Shown: positions 16,061 to 21,628 of the stretch, piece by piece
Position numbering within the stretch: the first letter of the stretch is position 1
How the letters are laid out: each line of letters starts with the position of its first letter
From: Plantactinospora soyae
GTDB lineage: Bacteria > Actinomycetota > Actinomycetes > Mycobacteriales > Micromonosporaceae
Length of the DNA stretch: 64,000 bases
Direction of reading: 5' to 3'
NCBI RefSeq assembly: GCF_014874095.1
Contig: NZ_JADBEB010000001.1
Span: 6,944,001-7,008,000 of the forward strand
The notes under the pieces: generated by a model
The model's database searches: none
The model's input: only the letters and a program-made list of their open reading frames with translations
Told to the model about the DNA's origin: nothing
Translations under genes and position numbers: made by a program

Positions 16061-16735
16061 TCAGCCCATGGCGCGGCGGTAGCGGGCGGCGACGATGGAG
16101 ACCCAGGTCGAGGCGGCGATGGAGCCGACGGCCAGGGTCAGGGATCCGGCCTGGCCGCCGCTCATCGCCCAGCCGTTGCCGAGCAGCAGGGCGGTGCCGG
16201 CGATCCGGGCGGCGATCGCGTGGCCCCGGTTCCCGGCCCGGCTGAAATGGTGGCCGAGGACGTAGCTGGCGGCGATCAGGGCGGTGAAGGCGACCGCGCC
16301 GGCGGCCATGTGGCCGTAGCTGTGCCAGCTGAGCGCCTCGGGTGTCCCGTACGGGGTGCCGGCGGGGAAGCCGTCGCCGGCGTCCATCACCAGTACTCCG
16401 GCCGCGATCATGCCGATGCCGTTGACCAGGATCAGTCGGGGTGCCCAGCGGCCGCCCGGTGTGCCGCGCATCATCCGGCGCAGTCCGACGGCACCGGCGA
16501 CGGTGAGGATCCCACCGAGCAGGAAGTTGGTGATCTGCAGCCAGCCGAGGGCACCGTTGCTCAGCATGCTCAGCGGATGGCGGGTCAGGTCGAAGCCGTC
16601 CCGGGTGGCGGCCTGGGCCAGGGAGACGGCGGTCCACAGCGGCGCCGAGACGACGCCGCAGGTGAGCAGGGTCCGGGTGCTGACCGCCGGGCGGGTGGTG
16701 GCGATGGTGGTGGTGGGGATCTGGCTGGTGGTCAT
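16061..16735 (-). CDS. DUF998 membrane protein
   Basis: A 224-residue integral membrane protein with six predicted helices. Family marks are the N-terminal TCGVVSAPLWTAVSL, RHPLSMLSNGALGWLQ between helices 1 and 2 and the SWHSYGHMAAGA segment. DUF998 proteins have no settled biochemical function. The gene is divergent from the YCII/ECF pair and shares its 165-base control region, so joint regulation by that sigma factor is possible. It converges on the SWIM gene with an 11-base gap. Confidence 0.85.
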   Translation of the reverse strand: MTTSQIPTTTIATTRPAVSTRTLLTCGVVSAPLWTAVSLAQAATRDGFDLTRHPLSMLSNGALGWLQITNFLLGGILTVAGAVGLRRMMRGTPGGRWAPRLILVNGIGMIAAGVLVMDAGDGFPAGTPYGTPEALSWHSYGHMAAGAVAFTALIAASYVLGHHFSRAGNRGHAIAARIAGTALLLGNGWAMSGGQAGSLTLAVGSIAASTWVSIVAARYRRAMG

Positions 16736-16795
16736 GGTGGGGCCTTCCTCGGATGTCGGCTGTTCCTGGTCGGCTACGCGTCGATCGGCCCATCC

Positions 16796-16822
16796 GACAG
16801 GGAACGCCGGCCGTTCCCTGTC
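16796..16822. promoter_or_regulatory. Inverted repeat between DUF998 and the YCII/ECF genes
   Basis: Perfect 11-base arms GACAGGGAACG and CGTTCCCTGTC with a five-base centre. The repeat contains GGAAC, the hallmark of ECF-type -35 boxes, on both strands and so could serve promoters in both directions. TACACT at 16826-16831 resembles a -10 box for the + strand. Regulator unknown. Confidence 0.55.
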
Positions 16823-16899
16823 ACATACACTGTTCGACGTCTGAGCAGGGCCGGAGAACCAGCCCGGACAGAGCAGGCGACGAGAGAAAGAGACATTCC

Positions 16900-17223
16900 A
16901 TGCGCTACCTGATGACGGCTATGCCCAGCGAGGTCGTACCGGACGAGAACCTGTACGCCGAAATGGCCCGGTTCGTCGAGGAGTTGACCGCGGCGGGAGT
17001 TCTGCTGGCCACCGGTGGCCTGGACCCGGCCGGTGTCCGGGTCACCTCGTCCGGGGACGAGATCACCGTGACGGACGGGCCGTTCGCCGAGGCCAGGGAG
17101 GCGGTGGCCAGTTTCGCACTGGTCGAGGTCCGGTCCCGGGAGGAGGCGGTCGAGCTGACCCGCCGGTTCCGCAGGATCGTCGGCGACGGCGAGAGCATGA
17201 TCCAGCAGGTCTTCGGTCCCTGA
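16900..17223 (+). CDS. YCII/DGPF-domain protein
   Basis: A 107-residue single-domain protein of the YCII-related (DGPF) family. The naming motif is present as TDGPFAEAREAVASFALVEV, after the canonical opening MRYLMTAMPSE. The ATG follows AGAGAAAGAGA. It lies 64 bases before an ECF sigma gene of the group (ECF42) known to be linked with DGPF proteins, which are reported to be needed for sigma activity. Binding to the sigma factor's C-terminal domain is the expected role; enzymatic activity is unproven. Confidence 0.9.
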   Translation: MRYLMTAMPSEVVPDENLYAEMARFVEELTAAGVLLATGGLDPAGVRVTSSGDEITVTDGPFAEAREAVASFALVEVRSREEAVELTRRFRRIVGDGESMIQQVFGP

Positions 17224-17287: not shown

Positions 17288-19315
17288 GTGGTGACGACGA
17301 CGGACCTGCACCGTACGGTCGACGCGGTCTGGAAACTCGAGTCGGCCAGGATCGTCGCCGGGCTGGCCCGGATGGTGCACGACATCGGTCTCGCCGAGGA
17401 GCTGGCCCAGGACGCCCTGGTTGCCGCGCTCGAACAGTGGCCGGCCTCGGGCATCCCGGGCAGTCCCGGCGCCTGGCTGATGGCCGTGGCCAAGCGGCGC
17501 GCCGTCGACCACCTCCGGCGCTCGCAGCGGCTGGACCGCCGGCACGCGCAGCTGGCCCACGAGCAGGGGCAGCAGCCGGAACCCGAGGCGCCGGAGCCGG
17601 AGACCGCGCAGGACGACATCCTGCGGCTGATGTTCATCTCCTGCCATCCGGTGCTGGCGACCGAGGCGCGGGTCGCGTTGACGCTCCGGGTGATCGGGGG
17701 CCTGACGGCCGCCGAGATCGCCCGGGCGTTCCTCGTGAGCGAGCAGCGGATCGTCGAGCGAATCGCCGGGGCGAAGCGGCGGCTGGCGCAGGAGCGGGTG
17801 CCGTTCGCGCTGCCGGACGCCTCGGAGCTGGCGGCCCGGCTGTCGTCGGTGCTGGAGGTCATCTACCTGGTCTTCAACGAGGGGTACGCGGCGACGTCCG
17901 GCGACGACCTGATCCGGCCGGGGCTGTGCCACGAGGCACTGCGGCTGGGCCGGCTGCTGGCCGGACTGGCACCCGGCGAGGCCGAGGTGCACGGGCTGGT
18001 CGCGCTGATGGAGATCCAGGCGTCCCGTTCGGCCGCCCGGACCGGACCGTCGGGTGAACCCGTCCAGCTGACCGAGCAGAACCGGGGACGCTGGGACCAG
18101 TTGCTCATCCGGCGGGGCTTCAGCGCGATGCTGCGGGCCCGGGAGGCTGGCGGCCCAGCCGGCCCGTACGTGTTGCAGGCGGCGATCGCGGTCTGCCACG
18201 CACAGGCCCCGACCGCGCGGCAGACCGACTGGCCCCGGATCGCATCCCTGTACGCGGCGCTGGCCCGACTGTTGCCGACCCCGGTCGTGGCGCTCAACCG
18301 GGCGGTGGCGGTCGGAATGGCGTACGGGCCGCAGGCCGGGCTCGCGATGGTCGAGGAGTTGACCACCGACCCGGCGTTGCAGGACTACCACCTGCTGCCG
18401 GGCGTCCGGGCAGACCTGCTGTTCCGACTGGACCGGTTCGAGGAGGCCCGTCGGGAGTTCCTCCGGGCCGCCGCGCTGACCGGGAACGCCGCCGAGCGGG
18501 CCTTCCTGCACCGCCGGGCCGACGAGGCGCGGGACCTGCTTCCGGCGGCGGAACCACAAGGGGCGGGACCGGCCGTCGGGATCGGTGTTCCGGCGGACAC
18601 GCTCGGCCGGGCCGCCGAGGACTTCCTGGGCCGGGAGGACCTGGACGCTGCGACGGTCCGCTCGTACGGGCAGACCCTGCGCCGGCTGCGGCGCAGCCTC
18701 GGCGACCAGGTGCCGCTGACGGCGTTGACCGCCGAGCAGGTGGCCGGGGTGTTCAGCACGGCGTGGGGTACGGCGGCGGCCCCGACCTGGAACCGGCACC
18801 GGTCGGCGATCCGGTCGTTCGGCTCCTGGGCGTCCCGGCCGGACCTCGCGGTGGGACTCGACCGCCGTACCGACGTCCGTTCCCCGACCCCGGCGATCGG
18901 CGTGGTGGAGCTGGCGGCGCTCTGGGACCGGACCGACCTGCCGGTGCGGGAACGGACGCTGTGGCGCCTGCTGCACGAGTCGGCGGCCACCGTGACGGCG
19001 GTGCTGTCGCTGGACGTGGAGCAGCTCGACCTAGACGACCGCCGCGCCCGGGTCGGCGGGGTCTGGCTCAACTGGCGGTCCGGCGCCGCCCGGCTGCTCC
19101 CCGAACTGCTCGCCGGCCGGACCCGGGGGCCGTTGTTTCTCGCCGACCGGCGGCCGGGACCGGCCCGGATGCCGTCGGACGCCGACCGGTGCCCGGAGAC
19201 GGGCCGGGGCCGGCTCTCCTACGAGCGGGCCGAGTACCTGTTCAAGCAGGCGACGAAGCCGCTGGATCCGACCGGTCACGGCTACACCCTGCGGCAGCTG
19301 CGGCCGCGTCGCTGA
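17288..19315 (+). CDS. ECF42-like sigma factor fused to a degenerate tyrosine-recombinase domain
   Basis: 675 residues in one open frame. Residues 1-175 are sigma-2 (LAEELAQDALVAALEQWP, PGAWLMAVAKRRAVDHLRR) and sigma-4 (LRVIGGLTAAEIARAFLVSEQRIVERI). Residues about 180-415 are the TPR-like ECF42 extension (LSSVLEVIYLVFNEGY, LNRAVAVGMAYGPQAGL, DYHLLPGVRADLL). Normal members stop there. This one continues with an integrase core-binding domain (about 436-520, TVRSYGQTLRRLRRSL) and a catalytic domain (about 540-675) ending at LRQLRPRR, where HxxR should begin. The first catalytic Arg is Thr in SAATVTAVLSL, the catalytic Lys is missing, and the His and Tyr boxes are absent. The GTG start follows GGAGGTGGGG. 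Confidence 0.85.
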   Translation: MVTTTDLHRTVDAVWKLESARIVAGLARMVHDIGLAEELAQDALVAALEQWPASGIPGSPGAWLMAVAKRRAVDHLRRSQRLDRRHAQLAHEQGQQPEPEAPEPETAQDDILRLMFISCHPVLATEARVALTLRVIGGLTAAEIARAFLVSEQRIVERIAGAKRRLAQERVPFALPDASELAARLSSVLEVIYLVFNEGYAATSGDDLIRPGLCHEALRLGRLLAGLAPGEAEVHGLVALMEIQASRSAARTGPSGEPVQLTEQNRGRWDQLLIRRGFSAMLRAREAGGPAGPYVLQAAIAVCHAQAPTARQTDWPRIASLYAALARLLPTPVVALNRAVAVGMAYGPQAGLAMVEELTTDPALQDYHLLPGVRADLLFRLDRFEEARREFLRAAALTGNAAERAFLHRRADEARDLLPAAEPQGAGPAVGIGVPADTLGRAAEDFLGREDLDAATVRSYGQTLRRLRRSLGDQVPLTALTAEQVAGVFSTAWGTAAAPTWNRHRSAIRSFGSWASRPDLAVGLDRRTDVRSPTPAIGVVELAALWDRTDLPVRERTLWRLLHESAATVTAVLSLDVEQLDLDDRRARVGGVWLNWRSGAARLLPELLAGRTRGPLFLADRRPGPARMPSDADRCPETGRGRLSYERAEYLFKQATKPLDPTGHGYTLRQLRPRR

Positions 19316-19327
19316 CGGCGACCGTCG

Positions 19328-20269
19328 TCAGCCGGCATCCGGTGTTCTGGCCAGCCACAGTCGGAGAAGGTCCCGGCGACGCTCCCGCTCCGGATGGTCC
19401 TCGTATCCGGTCCGGCTGTGCAGGACGACGTGGTTGTTGAGGAACTGCATGTCGCCGGTGCGCAGGTCCATGGTGAGCCTGAACCGGGGGTCGTCGTGGA
19501 GCCGGTCGAGGGCTTCCATCGCCGCGACCTGCGCCGGGCGCAGCGGCGGTACGTGGGCCGCGCGCTGGACGGAGCGCATGTAGTCCGGCCCGTAGTAGAC
19601 GGAGAGTCCGCCCTCGGTGTCGACGGTGTAGACCGGTCGTTGGAAGAAGCTGTCCGGGCCGTCGCCGGAGCGCCGGTCGTGCCACCACGGCTGGTAGAGC
19701 ACCTGCGCCAGGTCGGGACGGGTACGCGCGATCTCGTCGTGTACCGCGACCGAGCTGACGATCGTGCTGAGCCCGCCGGACCGGGCCGGTCGGATGCACA
19801 GCAGGGCGACGACGTCGGTCGGGTCGGCGTGGAACCCGAGGCGGTGGGGGTGCTGGTAGCTGCGGCTCGTCGGGTGGGTCGGATCGACGCCCTCGTCGCG
19901 TACGTGGCGCAGTGGCGCGCCATCCGGCCCCTGCGGCACCAGCCTGCCGACGTAGCCGGCGATGCCCAGCGCGATGATCTCGCACTGCCGCTCGGTGAGC
20001 CGGGCGACCGGCACGTCCTGGACGAGAGCGACTCCGGGACCGTCGGTCACCGTCGCGGCGAGTCGGTCGAGTTCGGGGCCGAGCGTCGGCAGGGGGAAAT
20101 CCGTCCGGGCGATGGCGCCCGGCGCGACCTGCGACGCCTCGACGGCGGCGAGCGCGGCGAGCAGTTCCGCCTGGTGTGCGTCGCCGCACGACAGCCGCCA
20201 CCCCGCGCTGCCGGCCAGCTGGTCGCCACGCCAGCTCGCCGGGCCGGAGACCTGCGCGATCATCGTCAT
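19328..20269 (-). CDS. TauD/TfdA-family Fe(II)/2-oxoglutarate dioxygenase
   Basis: A 313-residue soluble dioxygenase. The iron triad is visible as H147 and D149 in GFHADPTDVV and the distal His in NNHVVLHSRTGYEDH; the following RRRDLLRLWL holds the Arg that binds 2-oxoglutarate. LALVQDVPV and the PxxGxPxRHVRDEG-type segment resemble clavaminate-synthase-like members. ATG 20269 lies behind AGAGGG and is preferred to an upstream ATG at 20299. It follows pabB on the same strand after 150 bases. Family members hydroxylate amino acids or secondary metabolites; the substrate is unknown. Confidence 0.88.
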   Translation of the reverse strand: MTMIAQVSGPASWRGDQLAGSAGWRLSCGDAHQAELLAALAAVEASQVAPGAIARTDFPLPTLGPELDRLAATVTDGPGVALVQDVPVARLTERQCEIIALGIAGYVGRLVPQGPDGAPLRHVRDEGVDPTHPTSRSYQHPHRLGFHADPTDVVALLCIRPARSGGLSTIVSSVAVHDEIARTRPDLAQVLYQPWWHDRRSGDGPDSFFQRPVYTVDTEGGLSVYYGPDYMRSVQRAAHVPPLRPAQVAAMEALDRLHDDPRFRLTMDLRTGDMQFLNNHVVLHSRTGYEDHPERERRRDLLRLWLARTPDAG

Positions 20270-20419
20270 CTCGGCACCCTCTCGTCGGCCGGCGACCACC
20301 GCCGGGCGCTGACCTCAGGATGCCTTCCGAGCGATCCCGCCGTTGACCGCTATGCCGTCGGCGTAACGATTCTTGGCTGCTGCCGGGGGTGGGTCGGGGC
20401 GGCTCGGGTGTCGCGGGTG

Positions 20420-21628
20420 TTACCGGGTGCGGCCGGCCAGCGCGGCCCGGACCGGTCCGGCTTTGGCGGCGGCCTCGGCGACCTCGGCGGCGGGATCGCT
20501 GTCCCAGGTGATTCCGCCGCCGGCCCAGACGTGTACCCGGTCGGCGTCCACGGCGGCGGTCCGGATGGTCAGGCCCAGCTCCATCCGGTCGGGGCCGATC
20601 CAGCCGAGCCCGCCCATGCTGGCGCCCCGGCCGACCGGCTCCAGCGCGGCGATCTGGGCCAGCGCGGCGAGCTTCGGCGCGCCGGTGACCGAGCCGCCGG
20701 GGCAGACCGCCCGGAGCACGTCGGCCAGGCCCTGTCCGTCGGCGAGCGTCGCGGAGACCGTCGACTCGGCCTGCCACAGGTCCGACCAGCGGCGGATCGC
20801 GTAGAGCTCGTCGACCCGGACCGAGCCGGTCCGGGCGATCCGGGCGAGGTCGTTGCGCTCCAGGTCGACGATCATGACGTGTTCGGCGCGTTCCTTGGCG
20901 GATTCGAGCAGTTCCCGCCGGCCCTGGCCGGTCGCCGGTCGGGTGCCCTTGATCGGTCGGGTGAGCACCCGGCCGTCGGCGACCTCGACCAGGGTCTCCG
21001 GGGAGGCGCAGCCGATCGCCCAGCCGGCGCCGGTGAGTACCCCGCCGTAGCGGGCTCCGGGCAGCCGGGTCAGCCGGGTCAGCCCGGGCAGTGGGTTGCC
21101 GGTGTACCGGGCGGCGGCGTGCCCGACGACGTTGACCTGGTAGATGTCCCCCCGGCCGATGGCCTGCCGGGCCAGTTCCACGGCGGTGGCGTGCTGCTGC
21201 GGTGACCAGCTCTCCCGCCACGGCTCCAGCCGCCAGTCGGCCGCGGCGTGCCACGGCGGGGCGGTCCCCTCGCCGGGCCGGCCGTGCCGGTAGACGACCG
21301 CCACCAGGTCGGGGACGTCCGGCGCAGGGCTCGGCGGCCCGGTCGGGAATCCGACCATCCGGGCGCCGGCCGCGGCGGAGACGAACAGGGCCGCGCCGCA
21401 GACCGTGCCGGGCCGGGCGTCGGGGCGGTGCCGGACGGGCCGGGACAGGTCGCGGACCGGCAGGCCGTGTCCGGCGAGGAAGTCTTCGAGCAGCTGGGCG
21501 GGGTCGCCGGCCGAGCCGGTCCAGTACTGCCACCGGTCGTGTTCGACGAGCCCGGGTACGCAGGTGGTCGGCGCTCCCGGCGGCCTGTATGGGAGCGCTT
21601 CCACGACGGACGGTTCGATCTGCCTCAT
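20420..21628 (-). CDS. pabB: Aminodeoxychorismate synthase component I
   Basis: A 402-residue chorismate-binding enzyme. The catalytic domain has RPIKGTRPATG, whose Lys in the PIKGT position is typical of PabB (TrpE has PIAGT), then ERAEHVMIVDLERNDLARIA, VCPGGSVTGAPKLAAL and a C-terminal GGGITWDSDPAAE. It makes 4-amino-4-deoxychorismate from chorismate and ammonia on the way to p-aminobenzoate and folate. No pabA or pabC lies nearby, so the glutaminase partner must be elsewhere. The neighbouring dioxygenase does not by itself show a secondary-metabolite role. Confidence 0.9.
   Translation of the reverse strand: MRQIEPSVVEALPYRPPGAPTTCVPGLVEHDRWQYWTGSAGDPAQLLEDFLAGHGLPVRDLSRPVRHRPDARPGTVCGAALFVSAAAGARMVGFPTGPPSPAPDVPDLVAVVYRHGRPGEGTAPPWHAAADWRLEPWRESWSPQQHATAVELARQAIGRGDIYQVNVVGHAAARYTGNPLPGLTRLTRLPGARYGGVLTGAGWAIGCASPETLVEVADGRVLTRPIKGTRPATGQGRRELLESAKERAEHVMIVDLERNDLARIARTGSVRVDELYAIRRWSDLWQAESTVSATLADGQGLADVLRAVCPGGSVTGAPKLAALAQIAALEPVGRGASMGGLGWIGPDRMELGLTIRTAAVDADRVHVWAGGGITWDSDPAAEVAEAAAKAGPVRAALAGRTR

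What the first reader, a model, noticed from the sequence alone, without database searches (positions are those of the whole stretch)
17288..19315. ECF sigma factor carrying a fused, catalytically dead tyrosine-recombinase domain
After a complete ECF42-type sigma plus TPR-like extension the frame continues about 240 residues as an integrase: core-binding domain, then catalytic domain. The first catalytic Arg is Thr, the Lys is gone, and the protein ends exactly where the HxxR box starts, losing the His and Tyr. It could be a recent gene fusion in decay, or a domesticated DNA-binding module that gives the sigma factor sequence preference. I know of no described sigma-integrase fusion.
Basis: partly seen in the sequence, partly recalled or inferred. 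Interest (0 to 1): 0.85.

Follow-up and report, generated by a model that had tools for sequence, protein, structure and literature searches.

The report
Sigma factor with domesticated dead recombinase
A bacterial transcription-starting protein carries a dead DNA-recombining enzyme as a permanent tail and appears to use that tail, instead of its own usual reader, to recognise half of its promoter; many actinobacteria share it.

Summary
One frame (17288-19315, 675 aa) joins an ECF42-type sigma factor to a tyrosine-recombinase module. I found 123 distinct fused proteins in Actinomycetota. On the sigma and the recombinase tree they look like one event. 117 of 123 stop at the same place, in catalytic box II, and the module is under purifying selection. 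One relative (L164) keeps all catalytic residues; five keep the full fold without Arg and Tyr.

The module's probable DNA target is visible. The four closest free-standing relatives have a palindrome (TGTGACAGGGAA-N7-TTCCCTGTCACA or near) beside their genes. The same half-sites lie in the fused operon's promoter, the window's included (16792-16826). In 97 of 117 fused promoters a half-site precedes CG[AT]CG, the ECF42 -10; the usual -35 TGTCGA is nearly always gone. Sigma-4 residue R161, expected to read the -35, is present in 23 of 23 non-fused proteins and 11 of 123 fused ones.

Best reading: an inactive recombinase took over -35 recognition and drives a divergent promoter pair (DUF998 / YCII-sigma). 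Binding is inferred, not measured.

The parts
16061..16735 (-). DUF998 membrane-protein gene, divergent from the sigma operon
   Evidence: Pfam DUF998 E 1.5e-34; divergent in 85 of 85 fused loci in which it was found
16779..16783 (-). Putative -10 (CGACG on the minus strand) of the DUF998 promoter
   Evidence: left CGWCG found in 86 of 117 fused promoters
16792..16804 (-). Left recombinase half-site (ATCCGACAGGGAA, 2 substitutions from the common form)
16814..16826 (+). Right recombinase half-site TTCCCTGTCACAT; overlaps the last bases of the expected -35 and the spacer
16835..16839 (+). Putative -10 CGACG of the YCII-sigma operon, 8 nt after the half-site, 60 nt before the YCII start
16900..17223 (+). 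YCII/DGPF gene, first gene of the operon
   Evidence: Pfam YCII E 4e-11; adjacent in 73 of 74 named fused loci
17288..17797 (+). Sigma-2 and sigma-4 (residues 1-170); sigma-4 contact positions 141/154/157/161 read A-R-E-G
17798..18532 (+). DUF6596/TPR extension (residues 171-415)
18557..19315 (+). Linker and truncated, catalytically dead tyrosine-recombinase module (residues 424-675; core-binding 441-520, catalytic part 546-675), with stop codon

Best explanation
The protein is an ECF42-type sigma factor that long ago gained, probably in one fusion, a complete tyrosine recombinase at its C-terminus. The recombinase then lost catalysis and its C-terminal part but kept its core-site specificity. 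Seen in the sequences: the module's half-site (TT[C/A]CCTGTCACAT) sits in the operon's own promoter 8-9 nt before a CGACG -10; the usual ECF42 -35 (TGTCGA) is absent there; and sigma-4 residues expected to read that -35 have been lost. Inferred: the recombinase module binds the half-site, tethers the sigma to the promoter and replaces sigma-4 as reader of the -35 region, while sigma-2 reads the -10. Two such promoters back to back, sharing the recombinase palindrome, drive a DUF998 membrane-protein gene one way and the YCII-sigma operon the other way. It would be a dedicated autoregulated switch, since the exact motif was found at no other place in the carrier genomes searched. The signal (YCII protein, TPR part) is not known.
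For: Conservation: 123 distinct fused proteins, 117 with the same end point; dN/dS of the catalytic part 0.08-0.41 in the 25 closest of 903 pairs, sigma part 0.11-0.52. One origin: fused rows are one side of a branch on the sigma tree (SH-aLRT 95; 61 fused, 25 others) and on the module tree (76; 123 fused, 41 free). Target: GACAGGGAAN6-10TTCCCTGTC occurs in 17 of 354 family genomes, one place each, every place 0.4-1.9 kb upstream of a fused module. Promoter: half-site plus CG[AT]CG in 97 of 117 fused promoters (94 with 8-9 nt between), 0 of 22 non-fused, 0 in 50 shufflings; TGTCGA...CG[AT]CG in 10 of 22 non-fused and 4 of 117 fused. Sigma-4: T154 and R161 in 23 of 23 non-fused; R161 in 3 of 88 fused with the half-site promoter. 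Intermediates: L164 and the g138 clade keep R161, have a canonical or near-canonical promoter, and carry 1-2 half-sites further up, about 40 bp in L249. Specificity: over 56 carrier genomes 72 matches in 47 genomes, all 1.5-1.8 kb upstream of the fused module; over 368 order genomes 12 of 13 matching genomes are carriers, matching at the same locus. DUF998 is divergent in 85 of 85 fused loci where it was found.
Against: No binding or transcription was measured. 20 of 117 fused promoters did not meet the half-site rule, and 9 of 56 carrier genomes had no exact match. Only 10 of 22 non-fused promoters gave the canonical motif. Only 17 of 41 free integrases showed a palindrome in the DNA held. 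The promoter change and the sigma-4 change are probably one main transition on the tree, so their association is not many independent events and the Fisher p-values overstate it. R161 also persists in three non-basal fused proteins (L165, L197, L213), two of them with half-site promoters. Sigma-4 might still touch the TTCCC part of the half-site. Exact-pattern searches would miss degenerate targets elsewhere.
Confidence: 0.72

Rival explanations
1. The module is only an auxiliary DNA tether: it holds the sigma at the half-site, but sigma-4 still reads a new -35 (GTTCCC/ATTCCC) inside it.
For: The half-site overlaps the place of the -35; sigma-4 fold residues are conserved; in basal members half-sites lie upstream of a canonical promoter, as for a tether.
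Against: Recognition-helix positions are highly variable in fused proteins although the half-site is nearly constant; the same half-site occurs near recombinases that are not fused to a sigma.
Confidence: 0.15
2. The palindrome is an operator: the fusion represses its own divergent promoter, like MrpR, and another sigma transcribes the operon.
For: Dead recombinases can be repressors (PMC10516654, passages); a single operator-like site per genome.
Against: Spacing of half-site to an ECF42-type -10 is fixed at 8-9 nt in 94 of 97; single half-site promoters exist; sigma-2 stays conserved.
Confidence: 0.08
3. The palindrome is read by another protein (such as YCII or an unknown regulator) and the module has a non-DNA role.
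For: No binding measured; YCII is nearly always adjacent (73 of 74).
Against: Non-fused ECF42 operons have YCII but no such site in 0 of 22-23 examined; free recombinases have the site without the fused sigma.
Confidence: 0.03
4. Decaying passenger: a dead remnant without function.
For: Catalytic residues lost in nearly all members.
Against: One end point in 117 of 123 proteins, purifying selection, linked promoter.
Confidence: 0.02

Closest known systems
ECF42 sigma factors (e.g. Sven_0747; review PMC8999054, passages read)
   Same: Sigma-2/sigma-4, TPR-rich extension, YCII gene next door, CGACG-type -10
   Different: Extra C-terminal dead recombinase; -35 TGTCGA replaced by a recombinase half-site; sigma-4 contact residues lost; divergent promoter pair
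MrpR (YopR), SP-beta prophage master repressor (PMC10516654, abstract and passages read)
   Same: Tyrosine-recombinase fold that lost recombination and works as a DNA-binding transcription regulator
   Different: Free-standing phage repressor with a full fold; here the module is truncated, mostly chromosomal, fused to a sigma factor and inferred to act in activation
phi3T SroF bound to DNA (PDB 9rd5, listing only)
   Same: Same fold by Foldseek (rank 37), bound to DNA
   Different: Not fused to a sigma factor; what SroF does was not looked up
ALOG domain plant regulators (PMC3537659, start of abstract as listed)
   Same: Regulators derived from the DNA-binding domain of a tyrosine recombinase
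Cre/loxP, Xer/dif and lambda Int core sites (site layouts recalled)
   Same: Inverted half-sites around a 6-8 bp spacer; same fold
   Different: No catalysis expected here; spacer 8-9 bp or lost; single half-sites occur in some promoters
ECF41, ECF56, CorE sigma factors with fused C-terminal extensions (PMC8999054 passages)
   Same: Sigma factor with an added C-terminal part
   Different: Those extensions are described as SnoaL-like or regulatory, not as recombinase-derived DNA readers

Membership tests
ECF42 sigma factor | Sigma-2 and sigma-4 domains plus DUF6596/TPR C-terminal extension | tested here: met
   non-fused paralogs in relatives 60-69% identical over about residues 1-415. No ECF-group model was run; the group name rests on architecture, YCII neighbour and literature passages
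ECF42 sigma factor | YCII/DGPF gene in the neighbourhood | tested here: met
   16900-17223; 73 of 74 named fused loci
ECF42 sigma factor | Promoter TGTCGA (-35) and CG[AT]C (-10); motif recalled, seen here in 10 of 22 non-fused loci | tested here: not met
   -10 kept; -35 not found in the window nor in 113 of 117 fused promoters
ECF42 sigma factor | C-terminal TPR extension essential for activity | not testable with these tools
   Reported in PMC8999054; needs an experiment
Active tyrosine recombinase | Catalytic R, K, H-x-x-R, H/W and Y | tested here: not met
   T568, shortened Lys hairpin, RxxR, no Tyr
Tyrosine-recombinase fold | Core-binding plus catalytic domain, homology in sequence and fold | tested here: met
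   56-59% identity to free integrases L157, L172, L177
Recombinase-derived DNA-binding regulator (MrpR-like) | Specific DNA site bound by the module | tested here: inconclusive
   Site inferred from shared palindromes; binding not measured

The most novel reading that the evidence does not exclude
A bacterial sigma factor whose -35 recognition has been taken over by a domesticated, catalytically dead tyrosine recombinase: sigma-2 reads the -10, and a recombinase reads a former recombination half-site in place of sigma-4. Surviving intermediates (complete recombinase with near-canonical promoter plus upstream half-sites; dead full-length; truncated with substituted -35) record the route.
Probability: 0.62. 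Interest if true: 0.95.

Novelty: new variant of a known kind. Interest (0 to 1): 0.88.

Why it matters
Sigma factors are thought to find promoters with two built-in readers. If this is true, it is a natural case in which one reader was swapped for a domain of recombinase origin, with the DNA target brought along and the intermediates still alive. It makes the evolution of promoter specificity directly testable, offers sigma/promoter pairs with a long and rare recognition element, and adds an activating, cellular example to the known recombinases turned regulators.

Tried and rejected
Recent decay: rejected. Phage origin: one weak phage match (25% identity) and no viral-contig match; plasmids gave 168 records, all under 60% identity. 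Wider regulon: none found with exact motifs; one search used an 8-bp spacer with up to 3 mismatches and so could not see even the window's own 9-bp site. Covariation of half-site type (TTCCC 66, TTACC 22 of 88) with module residues (S459 and R505 of the core-binding part among the top ten positions) follows clades and was not used as evidence. Papers: searches listed no described sigma-recombinase fusion; the ECF re-classification paper and two ECF42 papers are not held and were not checked.

Rows dropped or to be read with care: frame-split or broken loci L041/L081/L158 (one gene), L055/L194 (G012, a 375-aa form with its site only 448 bp upstream of the module), L077, L117 and L131 were left out of the fused and free sets; L194 is still counted among the 90. 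In one search the only 'free' row without Arg is L077, a split fused gene. One search holds one spurious non-fused row (L034_N) and one duplicate (L012/L101). Of the 97 half-site promoters L164 is a degenerate match. Of those 97, 88 could be tied to an aligned sigma sequence. One search found 339 relatives but loaded only the best 80. The Lys column is not well aligned and was not counted. The first attempt to hand in this report was malformed and not filed.

Full report
What is there. The frame 17288-19315 codes for 675 residues: sigma-2, sigma-4, DUF6596/TPR extension, a linker (424-434 with pLDDT under 50) and a recombinase module. The module folds as a tyrosine recombinase (PDB matches) and ends inside box II. 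Of 43 fused proteins of the first set none has the first catalytic Arg; of 21 rows taken as free 20 have it, and the exception, L077, is a split fused gene. Over all 123 fused proteins Arg is absent in 119 and Tyr present in 1; of 41 free proteins 40 have the Arg and 39 the Tyr.

How far it is spread. In the window's family 89 of 354 genomes match the module; these include free-standing integrases. The family is probably Micromonosporaceae, since contigs of members coincide in length with named records (G022 with Catellatospora sp. KI3, G032 with Phytomonospora endophytica). A scan of named genomes gave 339 relatives, of which the best 80 were loaded; with 20 order-level loci (some repeating earlier ones) 90 of 100 are fused in one frame, L194 in a short form, in Streptomyces, Amycolatopsis, Nonomuraea, Microtetraspora, Kitasatospora, Rhodococcus, Actinomadura and others. 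After removing copies there are 123 fused and 41 free proteins. Four of 30 listed plasmid records (of 168) have the match annotated as a sigma factor.

History. On the module tree (164 rows) fused rows form one side of a branch, SH-aLRT 76; fused plus four free relatives (L157, L205, L172, L177) are together at 99. On the sigma tree the 61 fused rows are together at 95 against 25 others; L164, the g138 clade, L207 and L007 form a basal group (88) and the other 53 are together at 99. L164, from a metagenome-assembled Sphaerisporangium, keeps all catalytic residues examined; five g138 genomes keep the full length but have Pro for the first Arg and Phe (four) or Leu (one) for Tyr. The simplest order is fusion with a complete recombinase, loss of catalysis, truncation. 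The module is under purifying selection: mean pairwise identity 0.66 for the catalytic part and 0.53 for the core-binding part, against 0.67 for sigma and 0.25-0.29 for the linkers; dN/dS in the 25 closest of 903 pairs is 0.08-0.41 for the catalytic and 0.19-0.84 for the core-binding part.

The DNA site. In front of the YCII gene of fused operons lies a palindrome, ATGTGACAGGGAA-N-TTCCCTGTCACAT with a spacer mostly of 8-9 bp. The window has it at 16792-16826 with a 9-bp spacer. In a first pass 65 of 124 fused loci showed it; many of the rest did not reach the promoter, and 40 were fetched anew. The exact core occurs in 17 of 354 family genomes, one place each, every place 0.4-1.9 kb upstream of a fused module, with 0 for the reversed pattern. 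Free-standing integrases have a homologous palindrome near their genes in 17 of 41 cases with up to 4 substitutions from a looser pattern, against 0 of 41 on the reversed sequence; the four closest relatives have the same half-site with a 7-bp spacer. None of 23 non-fused ECF42 loci has it. The shared element is therefore most simply the recombinase's core site.

The promoter. Non-fused ECF42 operons show TGTCGA-N15-20-CG[AT]CG in 10 of 22. In fused operons 97 of 117 have a half-site followed by CG[AT]CG, 94 of them at 8-9 nt; in 95 of 97 this -10 lies 37-65 bp before the YCII start; shuffled promoters gave 0 in 50 rounds. The half-site overlaps the last bases of the place where TGTCGA would be and runs through the spacer. 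Some loci have only the right half-site, and in some the two half-sites are further apart, so the unit is one half-site plus one -10; the palindrome is two such units back to back. The left -10' is present in 86 of 117. DUF998 was found in 54 of 68 named loci with a left half-site and 0 of 5 without (Fisher p 0.0008, not corrected for phylogeny), and it is divergent in 85 of 85. In the window the DUF998 start (16735) lies 43 bases from the left -10', which fits the range on the other side.

Loss of the sigma-4 reader. Positions 141/154/157/161 read T-T-Q-R (21) or T-T-K-R (2) in 23 non-fused proteins. In the main fused clade they are scattered (154: V, R, T and others; 161: A, G, E and others). 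Mean entropy of sigma-2 and DUF6596 is lower in fused than in non-fused proteins (0.55 against 0.76; 0.47 against 0.63), that of the helix 152-168 higher (0.99 against 0.57). By the alignment R161 falls on the Arg of AlgU-type sigma factors that corresponds to R176 of E. coli sigma-E; its -35 contact is recalled, not tested. R161 remains in 11 of 123 fused proteins: the eight basal ones and L165, L197, L213; among 88 fused proteins with half-site promoters 85 lack it. The basal clade has canonical or near-canonical promoters (exact by my pattern in L249, L252, L254) with one or two direct half-sites further up. Protein and promoter thus changed together, though probably in one main transition.

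Regulon. In 56 carrier genomes the half-site promoter pattern occurs 72 times in 47 genomes (25 as divergent pairs), every place 1.5-1.8 kb upstream of the fused module; the reversed pattern gave 1, in G622. In 368 order genomes 13 match: 12 carriers at the same locus, and G197, where no fused gene was found; the reversed pattern gave 2 (G545, G622). The system seems to serve its own divergent promoter; weaker targets cannot be excluded.

Mechanism and limits. Seen in sequence: conservation, one probable fusion, loss of catalysis, shared site, changed promoter, lost sigma-4 residues. Inferred: binding, activation, takeover of -35 recognition, the divergent switch. A recorded precedent for a recombinase turned regulator is MrpR (PMC10516654, abstract and passages); the ECF42 background is from passages of PMC8999054, which report an essential TPR extension and a conserved YCII neighbour and do not contain the words integrase or recombinase. 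No paper listed by searches describes such a fusion; the main ECF classification and ECF42 papers are not held, so novelty in print is not fully tested.

Noticed in passing
L157, L172, L177, L205; also L070, L078, L082-L087, L089, L091, L218, L223, L224: Free-standing actinobacterial tyrosine recombinases with a compact inverted-repeat site near the gene: candidate Cre/lox-like recombination systems.
   Followed up: partly
L164:4672-6864: Sigma factor fused to an apparently complete tyrosine recombinase with the catalytic residues examined, in a metagenome-assembled Sphaerisporangium that also has a truncated fused copy (L103).
   Followed up: partly
L258, L259, L280 (promoters of G093, G094, G070): Promoters in which both half-sites changed together from TTCCC to TTACC, possibly with S459 and R505 of the core-binding part.
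   Followed up: partly
L055/L194 (G012): A 375-aa form of the fused gene that seems to lack a large middle part, with the palindrome only 448 bp upstream of the module.
   Followed up: no
window 19328-20299 and 20420-21628: TauD-family oxygenase and chorismate-binding enzyme on the minus strand right behind the sigma gene.
   Followed up: no
L036, L037: Fused proteins of 741-aa frames with a longer stretch between the TPR part and the recombinase module (L036: residues 406-500 between the two matches).
   Followed up: no
hits H2-H5: Four Streptomyces plasmids carry module matches annotated only as sigma factors.
   Followed up: no
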